Below are positions 2,242 through 63,048 of a DNA stretch of 64,000 bases, one piece after another. The position numbers and the translations under genes were made by a program. This stretch comes from a virus. Each line of letters starts with the position of its first letter. The stretch's first letter is position 1. The stretch spans positions 1 through 64,000 of IMG/VR virus record IMGVR_UViG_3300045125_000168; one strand, 5' to 3'. The notes beneath the pieces are model-generated. The model ran no database searches and was not told the origin of the DNA. It was given only the letters and a program-made list of their open reading frames with translations.

Positions 2242-5200
2242 ATTACCCGCGTTTGATATAGGCAGCTTGAACTTTACGATTTGCTTCCGGTGCTCCACCA
2301 AGAAAGCGGAGTTGGCCTGTTGGATAACCTAGCTCATCGTGTAAAACCTCAAAATCTACCCCACGTCTCGACAGAGGCCGTTTAAGAATAACAAGATCGA
2401 ATCATCAGATGTGGGCAGATCTGAGTTCAGGATAAAAGGAATCGTAAAGAGGTCTGTCTCGCCATCCGTCACTCCGAGACTTGACTGTCGCCAACGGTCC
2501 AGAGTGCGCTCGTTATAGTGCGCCCACACGGATTGGCCAGAGGCTGGTGCTAAATCCCCCAAGTAGGTGATCGAATCATTTCCCACATCCACAAGGTAAT
2601 CTTGACCCTGAAGCTGGAACAAACCTTCGAGGAATAAGTTAAGAGAGAGGCGGTCGTCCGCAGGACCGATGGGGTAATGAAAACTGTTTGTTGACCCCAT
2701 CCACCACTCCATCTAGTGCTTCAACTCGCTCGTAAAGCAAGTTGTCGCTCGGATTGATGCCCGGAAGACCCCGATTCCTTGCGAGGTCATCACAATCGGT
2801 GAACCGTTGGGGGTCAGGGAGATCTGGAAGCTATTGCGTGTGGGATTGACCACATAATACGCTTGTTCCGCTTGCAATCCTTCAGGGAGAGTGCCGCTTG
2901 AGGCCCAAAACGAGATGATCTGCCCTGAGTAAAGGGCATGATCGGCTAGGTTGATCGTGCTCGAAAGAGTATCAACTTCTGAGGTTCAAACCTCAAGGTG
3001 TCGATTGGGATGTACCAAGCCCAAAGTTTTTGCTCCGACGAAGGGGCGGCATCAAGTGTGAGGCGACTGCCACCACTCGACGTGACTTGATAGTCAAAGG
3101 TCGTCGTTGGTTGAAAAATCCCATCGATGAAAAGCATGATAGAGTTTTTGCCCGCGACCGAAGACAAGGTAAGCTCAAAGACTCTGTTGACCCCATCACA
3201 AACCCCTAGAGGCTCTTCCTGATAGGGCAACGTCGTGGTGGTGACGACCAGACGGAAATAGCGATCTTCTTCATTATAATCGTGCAAAAATCCGTGTTCT
3301 GTAATTTGGGAAAAAGAGACCCTGAGTGAAGACACCCTTGGGGTAGTTACACGGCTCATTGGCTATCATCGAGTCCAAAGGATGGTAGTCGATCGGAAAT
3401 GCTTCGCCATAGTAGTAGGGCTCTTGACGCAGAGTCGGTCGATAGTCGAACTGAAACTCGTTGCCACTATAAATTTGTAAAGCCTTGTACTAAGACCGTC
3501 TAACGTGAGGACCGTGCCCTCGTTGGCGTAAAGCGCCTCTTGCGAGGCAAAGCTCAGGTCTCGGACGGGTACCGCCCCACCTTCGATATTTTGCACAGTC
3601 AAGGCACTACTGCCCGACACTAAAGCGTTGTAAGACGGACCGATCTCTTTAGCACTGATGGTAAGATAGGTATCGTAAAGGTTGACGTTGTGGTTAGCAC
3701 CAAGGGTCGGATCTTCCGCCACCACACTACCAAGCCTTGCAAAGTCAAAGGCCGAGTCTACGTCCGTGGGAAAAGCGCCTACGGAATAGACATGCAGATA
3801 GGTCTCTTCGTGGCTTGGGATTGTTAGGATAGAACCCGTAAAGTCTTCGGATAGCTGAAAGCTCGTACTGGTGATGTTGCGCACAAAATAGATTTTCGCC
3901 ACGTCAAAGCCATCTGGCAGATTGGTGCCACTAACCTTGACCCTTTGAAGCTCATAGAGGTCATGACTTGGTGCAAATATGGACGAGGTAGAGGCGTCCA
4001 CTTCAAACACCACGAGATTGAAGTAGGCACTCACCGGACCCTATCGAGACTAAAGACCCACCGGATGGCGCACTGTAGAGTTGAAATTGCTTCCCACCCG
4101 TCGAGGGTGAGTCTTCTAAATTTCTAATGTAATAGGTCAGGTCTTCAGAGAGACCTGAGGGCACATCTCCATTCTGAAAGGGCATGACCTTGACAGGCAT
4201 CGTTTCATAAAAATTCTGGTCGTCACCTGTAAAGGTGATGAGCATTTCCATCAACCAACAGAGGATCGATGGTGATGACATTCAGACCAGACATGGCACT
4301 GATCGACTGAAACGAAGACGGTGACGTGTCCCCCGTGATGTCGGTGATATCAATCCCTAAGCCCGTGAAGCTCAAAGGTTTGATCGAGGCTTGAGAGGGC
4401 AATCGTGTCTTCTTCGCTATAAGTGATGCGGGGCGAGATACCTGCCAGAGTGGTGTCAGTTTTAGAGGTATAGATATACACCGTGCCTTGATGAACAAAA
4501 CTACCTTCGGAGGGGAACCCGCGAGTATGCTCGACAAAAACAATCGTGGACGAAATGCCCATGTCCGTCGTCTTGGTGCGGGCAAAACCGCCCAGCGTCT
4601 TGGCTTGGATGAGGATACGGCCATTTTGAATGTGCTCGGCATGGTAGACCCGAGACAGGATTGAATGGTTATTGATGCAAGAAGCTAGAGCGATCCCATC
4701 GTCTTCAAGGCTGACATTGACTTTAAAAAAGTTTTCATTGGGAGATGTCAGTTGAAACGAGCCGAGCCCCCGTGGTCAAGATGTCCACAGGCGGGCCGTT
4801 AAAAATTGGTGATAGTTTTAAAGTGTCCGTGGTGGGATCGACGACATAATAGGTCACACCGGGATTGAAGCCGACAGGCAAATTTGAAAGCCCTGAGCCG
4901 ACATCAAGCAACACCTCTCGTCCACTTGCCAAACCATGGTTGGGGATAGTGATGCGATCGGTTGTGGGCGACACCACGGAGGCATCAAAGATAAAAGAGT
5001 CCACGGGATTTGCCACGGCTTTGAGCGTGACGCCCAGTTCCTCAAAGTCCAACGTGGAGTTCGTGTCCACTCGGCCTGTCACGATAATTTGACCGGACGC
5101 TGGTGCAACTCCCAAAAAATGAGTGTTGGCTATTTCCAACGTCGTGCCTACTGGCAGTCGGTCTAAGGCTTTCCCGATCGTAGCCGTGGCAAATCGACCC

Positions 5201-45466: not shown

Positions 45467-45600
45467 GTCAACTACCTACCCCTAAAGGGGTAGGCTTGTG
45501 GATTCACTAGGTTTTAAACCCAGCGAAATACCAAGGCTGGAAGACGCAGCCCCTACAAGTTAGCTCTTTGACAAAAGCATCACCTATACTTTTTCTCAGA
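45467..45600 (-). ncRNA. Predicted omega-RNA (reRNA) region, element 1
   Basis: By analogy with known TnpB systems, the right end of the element, including the tnpB 3' end and the CTACCCC-AAA-GGGGTAG hairpin at 45475-45493, would be the guide scaffold. The guide would then read into the flank below 45467. Boundaries are approximate; no experimental or covariation support. Confidence 0.4.
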
Positions 45601-46749
45601 ATATTGATGGCTCCATTGATATCTGCGTTCACGAGCTTTCCGAGAGAGGACTGAAAAAGACCTCGTTTTACTCGTTTTCCCAGATATTTTTCTTGTCGAG
45701 AGATAGGCTCTAAGGCCAAAGAATCAGTTTTTGAGGTGTAGGATTCTTCGATAGTCTCGACGGTGAGGCCATGTTTCTCTGCTTTGTACTGCAAGAGAAA
45801 AAATTAACTTAGCGTGAGGAATTTGCACAAAATTCTGGTTGTTAATTCTTCCGAGATTGACTTCATTTTTCCAACCGATGTTTTTTCCGATAACGATCTT
45901 AGATATGTCGTTACTCAAGCAGTAAGAGATGATGTTACTTGAGACCTTATGCAGCGTGTCTTTAATTCTCCTCGACCTTTTCTTGGTGAGAGATATTTTC
46001 TGCTGCTTGAGCTTCATTTTTAAGGTTATGTTTTTCAAGGTCGATCTGGGATTGAAATTCAGCAGACTTTTTATTGTAGAACTGGTTTTGCGATTTGAGC
46101 TTTTTTCCTGAGAAAAGAAAGGCGTCACCGTCTGAAGACACGCAAGCTGCAAGGTTATTGGTGCCAAGGTCTATACCTAGAACCTTAGAAGTCTCGACCT
46201 TAGGTTGTTCCTCAACTTCATAGCAAAACTTGATTTTGAATTGCCCGTGAGACTGAGGTTTTAGAATTACGAGATCGATACTCTGGTCTTTAAGATACGA
46301 GGGAATCTGGAAATGGAGAAACTTCACCCCATACCTATTTCTCAAATATTTTGAAAGGCTGACTCTCACTTGACCATTTTCAACAGAGGAGACGGTCCAC
46401 CAAACTCTACCTCGAAAAGACCGTTTTTCTTATATTGCGGTGGTCTTATTTTCTCGTCAGGTTTTGCGACTTTTAGGTGTTTGAAAAAACTTTGGTAGTC
46501 TCTGTCTACGCGGTAAATAATAGCCTGGGAAACCCAAGAATTGAGCTTGTAGTATAGCTTAGGATTTTGATCTCTGACTTGGGAGTAGATTTTATACTTA
46601 TTGAGGTACTTGCCCTCTGTTTCTCGAAAAAACTGACGTTGATTGTACAGTGTGTAGTTATAGAGGCATTTGGAAATGTGTGAGGCTTCAGAAAGAATTT
46701 TCTTTTCCAAAGAGTTGAGGTTTAAGATTTCTTCATAGCTCAATATCAT
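45507..46749 (-). CDS. tnpB: TnpB RNA-guided nuclease (element 1), frameshifted
   Basis: Three frames join near 46370, 46150 and 45790. RuvC-I is LGIDLGTNNLAACVSSDG. RuvC-III is LVNADINGAINILRK near the C-terminus. The segment between is ISKIVIGKNIGWKNEVNLGR, where G stands at the place of the usual RuvC-II glutamate, then TIEESYTSKTDSLA. The zinc ribbon found in many TnpBs is absent; RGLFQSSLG takes its place. This is the zinc-less TnpB type with alternative glutamates (EESYTSK). With frame errors the copy appears inactive as assembled, but the errors are probably sequencing artefacts. Its omega-RNA would come from the 3' end. Confidence 0.75.
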
Positions 46750-58950: not shown

Positions 58951-58995
58951 ATATCCCCCGTGTGCGACTTGAAAAAATCTTTCACAGGGGGAGTG

Positions 58996-59083
58996 CGGAG
59001 AGAGTGGGATTTGAACCCACGTTACCCTTTTGGGGTAAACTCGCTTTCCAAGCGAGCGCCTTCAGCCACTCGGCCACCTCTCC
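58996..59083 (-). tRNA. tRNA-Ser (anticodon GGA)
   Basis: The acceptor GGAGAGG pairs with TCTCTCC (one G-T), the D arm reads GGCCGAGTGGCTGAAGGC, the anticodon stem CTCGC/GCGAG encloses TTGGAAA (anticodon GGA), and a long variable arm follows (TTTACCCCAAAAGGGTAA) as expected of serine tRNAs. The T arm is GTGGGTTCAAATCCCAC. The discriminator is G, and CCA is not encoded. It reads serine codons UCC and UCU. Confidence 0.92.
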
Positions 59084-61002: not shown

Positions 61003-61546
61003 GACCTAATCCGTCACGCTATCATTGCAAGACTCAGAGAGCCGAGTCCTCAGTTATCCATTCCATTGCCGCATCTTCCGCAGCTACCCCATCAGCATGA
61101 TCTTCCGAAATCGCTCCAGGGTTGTTAAGAACTAGCTTGTATTCGATCTTCTGGTATTTCTGTCCGAGCCTATAAGTCAGGTCCCAGGGTTCGTTAGGCA
61201 TGTGACTATCGATCATCAATGTCGCGTCGTCGGCTTCCTTAAAAATATCGGCCAGACGTGTCATGATCCTAAGTTCTCGTCGTGAAAATAGCTTGTCGTT
61301 GAAATCGACGTTTGGACGTACATCCCAATCGATATCGTCAATACGAGTGAACATAACAGCACCAGCTAAGTCTGCCTTTGGTTGCTGGATTTCGTCGTGA
61401 AGTGCGACTGGAACTGGCCCATTCGGCCAAGCATAGTAATCGAGCCCGGTAACTATTCGGCCTGTTTCCTTGAAGTGCTCGAAATCCAAGAATGCAAGCA
61501 GCTTGAATAGCTTCCATTTGCGGCAATTCTTTGTGTTTGAAACAAA

Positions 61547-61690
61547 TTGACGCCCTCCCCATGGCTAAAGCCAGGGATTCCTAACTCACTTTAGAAGTTA
61601 GCGCATCGCGCCCGATGCGGAGAATGTTCAGTGCTGCGTTGACATCTCTATCGTGGATCGCTCCACAGCCGCAGCACACCCACTCTCTTA
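61547..61690 (-). ncRNA. Predicted omega-RNA (reRNA), element 2
   Basis: The scaffold would cover the tnpB 3' end and the right-end hairpin. The guide would be read from 61546 downward (first bases TTTGTTTCAAACACAAAG), that is the Panacea sequence right beside the insertion. The 5' boundary is approximate. By known TnpB biology the guide targets the empty site. Confidence 0.5.
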
Positions 61691-62625
61691 TCGAGAGACC
61701 TTTCACCCCTTTGGGGGAGCTTTCTGGAATTACTCCACAGAAAGAACAGGTCCTCGTTGTGTTGGCCTCATCGACCTCCACGTACCAACGCCCACGCGCA
61801 CTCGCTTTGTATTTGAGCATTGTCTTAAACATCGTTGTCGCGGCATCATTGATGGACTTAGCCATTCTTGTTTTGGCAAGTTTTTTTGCACCAAAGTTTC
61901 CGACAACAATCACCTTATTTTCATCAGCAATCTTAGTGGTAGCCTTATGCAGATCGTCCATGCGCTTATTTTTGATTTTGGCATAGATACCTTTAGCTTG
62001 CCTTTTCTTTTTCCCTCTCTGTGCCTTTGCGAGCTTGCGCTCCATCATTCCGGTAGTAGCGTCCGTTGGACACCTTTTCCCCGTTTGATAGGGTTGCTAC
62101 AGATTTCAATCCTAAATCTATGCCTACCTCACCTTGAACTTTAGGTGCTCGTACCTCGTAGTCTATGGAGACACAAAGATACCATCTCCCGCGAGAGTCT
62201 TCGCAAAACTCACCTGCTCCATGAGCTACATCAGGCAACCGTTCCGGCTGAAACAATTTAAACTTGTGACCAGCGTAGGTGGCTTTGCCGTTTTTAAAAG
62301 AGATCCCTGTCTTCTTGAAAGGTATCCAACCAAGGGATTTTTTTCCACGCCATCTCAGTTTTCTTTTTTGGCTTTTTTGTCTTCTGAGAGCGTATTCCTG
62401 ACAGACCTCTTGGATGGTGGTCGAGTTAAGACCTAATTCTTTGCTAGAACCTTTTGTGAGCTTTTCTAAGTCTTGCGCGTTGAGCCACCGGCTATGGTTT
62501 CGCAAGGCATAAAAAGAAGTTTCATTACAAAAATTCCAGACATAATTGACGGCTCGTGCCATTTGTTTCAGGTGCTTGGCAGTGGCAGCGTCTTTTATGC
62601 GAATTTTAATAGTTTTTTTTGACAT
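61581..62625 (-). CDS. tnpB: TnpB RNA-guided nuclease (element 2), one frameshift
   Basis: Start MSKKTIKIRIKDAATAKHLK with the helical TnpB N-terminus. RuvC-I is VGIDLGLKSVATLSNGEKVS. After a frame change near 62030 it reads KQRGKKKRQAKGIYAKIKNK and KVIVVGNFGAKKLAKTRMAK, with G instead of E at the usual RuvC-II glutamate. The zinc ribbon is TRTCSFCGVI and WVCCGCGAIHDRD. The segment YVEVDEANTTRTC carries candidate alternative glutamates. RuvC-III is HDRDVNAALNILR. It ends DALTSKVS-stop. With an omega-RNA it should cleave DNA next to a TTTAC-type motif; nuclease activity depends on the substitute glutamate. Confidence 0.8.
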
Positions 62626-62891
62626 CGCATCGCGATGTTTACACTATTTTCGGCACCTTTTCAAGGTTCAGCTTCGCTGGGCGCGGCTTATATCCCCATG
62701 CCTAAAGGCAGGGGCTTTACGCCGTTTTCTCGGTAAATGATCGCATGAATTAACTTTTCTCTTTGCGTGGGCAGTTTCAATTTCTTTGCTCACCCTTTGC
62801 GCGTCAAAGAGTCAGTTACCCGGAAATCCCGGATAACTGATTATCCCAAATAACTCTTTAACATGCTGTAATTACTGGCTTTTAAGGCTAG

Positions 62892-62980
62892 TGGCGGAGG
62901 GGTGGGATTTGAACCCACGGACCAGTTTCCCAGTCGCGGCCTTAGCAAGGCCGTGCCTTAAGCCACTCGGCCACCTCTCC
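62892..62980 (-). tRNA. tRNA-Ser (anticodon GCT)
   Basis: The D arm is GGCCGAGTGGCTTAAGGC, the anticodon stem CGGCC/GGCCG encloses TTGCTAA (anticodon GCT), a long variable arm follows (CGACTGGGAAACTGGTC) and the T arm is GTGGGTTCAAATCCCAC. CCA is encoded. The 3' acceptor strand is only CCCTCC before the discriminator G, one base short of the 7-bp stem with GGAGAGG, which probably reflects a lost base in a C run. It reads serine codons AGC and AGU. Confidence 0.85.
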
Positions 62981-63048
62981 ATCGAATGATGAATCAACTA
63001 TATCTCCCACAAAGATTTTTTCAAAGAACTTCTTGGGAGATCTTGTCG

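What the first reader, a model, noticed from the sequence alone, without database searches (positions are those of the whole stretch)
61034..62780. TnpB element sits precisely in a Panacea antitoxin-like gene and should target the empty site
Removing 61547-62732 joins 16 codons and 171 codons (with stop) in frame to a full-length, family-consistent protein (IIY-FVSNTK junction). The outside left flank is TTTAC (target TTAC) and the right end is TCAA, as known for IS608. Because the guide of a TnpB omega-RNA is the sequence beyond the right end, this copy would be programmed against intact copies of this Panacea gene in related phages, a homing-like relation that also disables an antitoxin-type gene. 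The element lacks tnpA, so it depends on a partner or on TnpB-driven copying.
Basis: partly seen in the sequence, partly recalled or inferred. Interest (0 to 1): 0.85.

Follow-up and report, generated by a model that had tools for sequence, protein, structure and literature searches.

The report
TnpB insertion sequence inside phage gene
A small mobile DNA element carrying an RNA-guided DNA cutter has inserted cleanly into an antitoxin-like gene of a giant phage, an insertion of a known kind, although its cutter gene reads as broken by one extra base that is probably a sequencing error.

Summary
Window 61547-62732 (minus strand) is a 1186-nt tnpB-only IS200/IS605 element with IS608-like ends. 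Removing it joins 16 + 171 codons into a full-length Panacea protein. All 37 uninterrupted homologues fetched align without a gap across the junction. The left flank is TTTAC and the right end is TCAA. The layout recurs in relatives, one of which carries a divergent tnpA.

(2) No empty-site allele was found. None of the 37 homologues has TTAC at the site and each has 6-13 mismatches to the 20-nt guide, so known Panacea genes are not targets. (3) The Panacea gene is solitary: the small gene that follows it in 33 of 37 homologues is absent. (4) No tnpA was found in the 236-kb record.

Donor-site cutting by TnpB is published, and tnpB-only elements in virulent phages are known. This is a well-verified new member of a known kind.

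The parts
61547..62732 (-). tnpB-only IS200/IS605 element with IS608-type ends (1186 nt)
   Evidence: TTAC target before the left end, TCAA right end, same layout in relative L019; precise junction in the host gene
62733..62780 (-). first 16 codons of the interrupted Panacea gene (TTG start), ending in the TTTAC target
61034..61546 (-). remaining 171 codons (with stop) of the Panacea gene
   Evidence: PF13274, 48.9 bits, cut-off 25.7
61993..62625 (-). tnpB, first frame (RuvC-I aspartate, GIDLG); matches relatives up to about residue 192
61581..62048 (-). tnpB, second frame (alternative glutamate, zinc ribbon, HDRD aspartate)
62046..62052 (-). approximate place of the one extra A (CGGAATGATG against CGG-ATGATG) that breaks the tnpB frame
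62695..62732 (-). left end with AAAG and subterminal hairpin (CCCCTGCCTTTAGGCATGGGG)
61547..61580 (-). right end with GAAT, hairpin and terminal TCAA
61547..61686 (-). putative right-end (omega) RNA scaffold
   Evidence: predicted hairpins, z -2.3; paired changes among four relatives; expression not tested
61527..61546 (-). expected guide (TTTGTTTCAAACACAAAGAA), which is also Panacea coding sequence
   Evidence: position rule of PMC8612924; comparison with homologues

Best explanation
A tnpB-only IS200/IS605 element with IS608-type ends inserted on the 3' side of a TTAC in the Panacea gene of a jumbo myovirus, by single-strand transposition with a TnpA supplied in trans. The gene is cut after codon 16 and now reads 30 aa to a stop. 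Those anatomical steps are shown; the transposition route follows from the family. Inferred, not shown: an RNA from the 3' end of tnpB plus the right end carries TTTGTTTCAAACACAAAG as its guide, and TnpB (alternative-glutamate RuvC clade) cuts TTAC followed by that sequence. That target exists only where this same site is empty, that is after excision or in a near-identical sister phage; repair from the element-bearing copy would restore the element. The one-base break in tnpB is most likely a sequencing or assembly error.
For: Ends and precise junction. TnpB family match. D, alternative E and D all present (read with PMC10711439). A relative with an intact divergent tnpA. Right-end hairpins with paired changes. 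Frame breaks also in UvsX, PolA and IscB of the same record, which makes error the likelier cause. Donor-joint cutting is shown, and homing proposed, for ISDra2 TnpB (PMC8612924); a gene-drive effect is reported on plasmids (PMC11870625).
Against: As sequenced, tnpB is not one open frame. No empty-site allele was found. No tnpA in the record, which may be incomplete. No expression data. Covariation rests on four sequences and overlaps coding sequence.
Confidence: 0.72

Rival explanations
1. The element is a dying remnant: the extra A is real, tnpB makes no nuclease, and the insertion is simply a disrupted gene waiting to be lost.
For: The frame break is in the sequence. The second TnpB and the IscB of the same record are broken too, as expected if such elements decay in this phage.
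Against: Replication genes UvsX and PolA of the same record show the same kind of one-base breaks, which points to sequencing error. Apart from the extra A the coding alignment to L019 has only a whole-codon gap, and the catalytic residues are kept.
Confidence: 0.22
2. The element is an IStron or other intron that splices out of the Panacea transcript, so the gene is not disabled.
For: Exact in-frame junction.
Against: No group I or II intron found by Rfam at E<=1. Only about 107 nt lie between the left end and tnpB and under 40 nt behind it. A precise junction is expected of any IS200/IS605 insertion.
Confidence: 0.02
3. The protein is a domesticated nuclease-dead TnpB (TldR) acting as an RNA-guided repressor.
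For: The canonical RuvC-II glutamate is absent, and TldRs occur in phages (PMC13418256).
Against: The glutamate is at the alternative position used by a large TnpB clade. The element keeps full transposon ends and lies inside a gene.
Confidence: 0.03

Closest known systems
IS608 / IS605 (IS200/IS605 family) of Helicobacter pylori
   Same: TTAC target, no target duplication, subterminal hairpins, TCAA right end; AAAG and GAAT before the hairpins (the last points recalled as IS608 features)
   Different: No tnpA in this copy; relative L021 has tnpA divergent from tnpB
ISDra2 TnpB (PMC8612924)
   Same: Same protein family and right-end layout; guide taken from the right flank by the same rule
   Different: Target TTAC instead of TTGAT; RuvC-II glutamate at the alternative position; about 347 aa; frame broken as sequenced
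TnpB clade with alternative glutamate and D-phi-G (PMC10711439)
   Same: DLG at RuvC-I and E-x6-CxxC at RuvC-II
   Different: No difference seen in these motifs; this one is carried by a jumbo phage
ISCaje1-4 in virulent Campylobacter phages CP220 and CPt10 (PMC2853527)
   Same: tnpB-only IS200/IS605 elements in virulent phage genomes
   Different: This copy lies inside an identifiable gene whose uninterrupted reading frame can be shown from homologues

Membership tests
IS200/IS605 (IS608-type ends) | Insertion 3' of TTAC, right end TCAA, no target duplication | tested here: met
IS200/IS605 (IS608-type ends) | Subterminal imperfect hairpins preceded by AAAG (left) and GAAT (right) | tested here: met
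   the tetranucleotide rule is recalled knowledge
IS200/IS605 (IS608-type ends) | Y1 transposase TnpA | tested here: not met
   no PF01797 match in the record, controls positive; so this is a tnpB-only derivative, a recognised subgroup (PMC2853527). Relative L021 has tnpA
TnpB RNA-guided nuclease | RuvC D-E-D residues and zinc ribbon | tested here: met
   GIDLG, E-ANTTRT-CSFC and HDRD across the two frames; NF040570
TnpB RNA-guided nuclease | One open reading frame | tested here: not met
   one extra A; probable sequencing error, unresolved
TnpB RNA-guided nuclease | Right-end RNA made and used for cleavage next to the TAM | not testable with these tools
   only hairpin conservation was seen
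Panacea (SocA_Panacea, PF13274) | Pfam profile over cut-off and GPV motif | tested here: met
   48.9 bits against 25.7; GPVP; GPV motif as signature from PMC8832971
Panacea toxin-antitoxin pair | Adjacent partner gene | tested here: not met
   a small gene follows Panacea in 33 of 37 homologues, absent from the window and not found in the record; an unrelated partner is not excluded
SocA antitoxin proper (NF047745) | Score over curated cut-off | tested here: not met
   18.8 bits against 190, for the 170-aa part
IStron | Group I intron inside the element | tested here: not met
   no Rfam intron at E<=1
TldR (nuclease-dead TnpB) | Loss of RuvC catalytic residues | tested here: not met
   all three residues present, glutamate at the alternative site

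The most novel reading that the evidence does not exclude
The element acts as a homing drive among co-infecting jumbo phages of one lineage, erasing a solitary phage Panacea gene that may have served as an anti-defence antitoxin, alongside a second TnpB and an IscB element in the same genome.
Probability: 0.12. Interest if true: 0.5.

Novelty: new member of a known kind. Interest (0 to 1): 0.3.

Why it matters
It is a clean natural case in which the pre-insertion gene, the expected TAM and the expected guide can all be read from one sequence, so TnpB homing in phages could be tested with a defined target. It also shows the limit of the idea: a TnpB guide is so specific to its own site that none of the 37 homologues found is a target. 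The mechanism itself is not new.

Tried and rejected
Looked for the empty site: protein scan of viral contigs with the Panacea part (nothing), a degenerate pattern of the junction peptide (four contigs with no detectable Panacea homologue), phage and plasmid records, genome contigs and an alignment-based viral scan. Homologues were found, none closer than about 51% identity. Looked for DNA-level relatives of the element in phages and plasmids (nothing useful). Looked for relatives of the phage through its UvsX: no viral contig confirmed; jumbo phages such as BcepSauron at about 32% identity. Intron/IStron and TldR readings rejected as given under the rivals. Off-target sites: one weak match elsewhere in the record, without TTAC. 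The 23-nt identity with the IscB element is a shared hairpin motif in the opposite orientation to the nuclease gene, so it was not taken as common descent. A structure prediction was not run: sequence profiles already settle the family.

Full report
What was checked. The window is the first 64 kb of a 236,430-base virus record. It encodes a myovirus-like baseplate protein, a tail fibre, a DnaB-like helicase and a UvsX-like recombinase. Its UvsX matches jumbo phages such as BcepSauron at about 32% identity, so this is most likely a jumbo myovirus.

The insertion. On the minus strand, 62780-62733 encodes LKLPTQREKLIHAIIY and 61546-61034 encodes FVSNTKNCRKWKLFK... to a stop. The second part is a Panacea protein (PF13274, 48.9 bits, cut-off 25.7). 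Joined, they give a 186-aa protein. Seven uninterrupted homologues from bacterial genomes (36-51% identity) and thirty from viral contigs (27-51%) all align with no gap across the junction residues 16|17. Several of these loci are near-duplicates and not independent. As it stands the gene reads 30 residues, 14 of them in the element, and stops.

The element. 61547-62732 has the layout TTTAC | CGAGAAAACGGCGTAAAG-hairpin ... tnpB ... GAAT-hairpin-AGGGCGTCAA | flank. Relative L019 (73% DNA identity) has the same layout with TTAC at the left and TCAA at the right; L020 and L021 share the right end, and several more distant elements also end in TCAA. L021 carries an intact, divergently oriented tnpA. 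From my knowledge of IS608, AAAG and GAAT before the hairpins are the tetranucleotides that guide TnpA cleavage. No Y1 transposase is found in the record, with positive controls, so mobility needs a TnpA in trans.

The nuclease. tnpB is split into two frames. PF01385 positions 2-60 lie in the first frame and 61-118 in the second. Against L019, L020 and L021, which are intact (71-76% protein identity), the window has one extra A, CGGAATGATG for CGG-ATGATG. Aligned to ISDra2 TnpB through L019, the canonical RuvC-II glutamate is a glycine, but a glutamate stands six residues before the first CxxC. This is the Ealt arrangement described in PMC10711439, and RuvC-I is D-L-G, so the protein belongs with the Ealt, D-phi-G TnpBs. 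The D, Ealt and D residues are all present across the two frames.

Is the frame break real? UvsX of the same record is split over two frames. PolA changes frame several times. IscB is split where one T seems missing from a run. The second TnpB is split too. Breaks of this kind in replication genes point to indel errors in the assembly, probably from long reads. That is inference: the reads are not available here, and a truly broken tnpB remains possible.

The guide. By the rule shown for ISDra2 (PMC8612924), the guide is the right flank TTTGTTTCAAACACAAAGAA and the TAM is the left target TTAC. The 3' end of tnpB plus the right end folds better than shuffles (z -2.3). Among four relatives, four pairs change on both sides, against 0-2 when partners are slid. 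This is modest support: four sequences are few, part of the region is coding, and the structure was derived from one of them.

What would be targeted? In the 37 intact homologues the site next to the junction never reads TTAC, and the 20-nt guide has 6-13 mismatches. These Panacea genes are therefore not expected targets; only a near-identical allele would be, and none was found. In the record itself the guide matches only its own flank, where the TAM is replaced by TCAA, plus one weak site without TTAC. Self-cutting of the filled site is thus avoided, as expected.

The Panacea context. In 33 of 37 homologous loci a small gene (MTPGSVFFDEEFHFHDGETGEKL...) lies directly behind Panacea. It has no match in Pfam, NCBIfam or PADLOC. 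It is missing from the window and was not found in the record (the record search had no positive control). No same-strand partner is seen next to the phage gene. The phage Panacea gene thus looks solitary, and calling it a disabled antitoxin is a guess about its past role. Panacea domains neutralise diverse toxins (PMC8832971), so a solitary phage copy could have acted against host toxins; this is untested.

Verdict. The mechanism is the published one for TnpB elements (donor-joint cutting, PMC8612924; plasmid drive, PMC11870625), and tnpB-only elements in virulent phages were reported in 2010 (PMC2853527). The novel part of the interpretation, targeting Panacea genes in related phages, is not supported beyond a hypothetical near-identical allele.

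Noticed in passing
window 45507-46749 (-): A second TnpB-like element (PF01385 and PF07282 pieces), broken over several frames.
   Followed up: partly
L003:6712-8195 (-), record about 144.7-146.2 kb: An IscB element (NF040563, E 7e-104), also split by one base; a hairpin next to it shares 23 nt exactly with the right end of the TnpB element.
   Followed up: partly
L065 (record 82697-86509): DNA polymerase A seems to contain an intein (GRLSS | CIAAGSLVEVV ... ELCVHN | SSPNFQNLP) with an HNH-like stretch, and several one-base frame breaks.
   Followed up: no
L012:5540-5944, L034:5540-5956 and 31 other loci: A conserved small gene without any family match lies directly behind Panacea; it may be an undescribed partner.
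   Followed up: partly
L019 about 4504-4560: The related TnpB element of L019 has as its right flank, and so as its expected guide, codons that read like helicase motif VI (TYQTIGRVLRKS).
   Followed up: no
window 58995-59083 and 62893-62981 (-): Two tRNA-Ser genes (GGA and GCT anticodons); the second lies just upstream of the interrupted Panacea gene.
   Followed up: no
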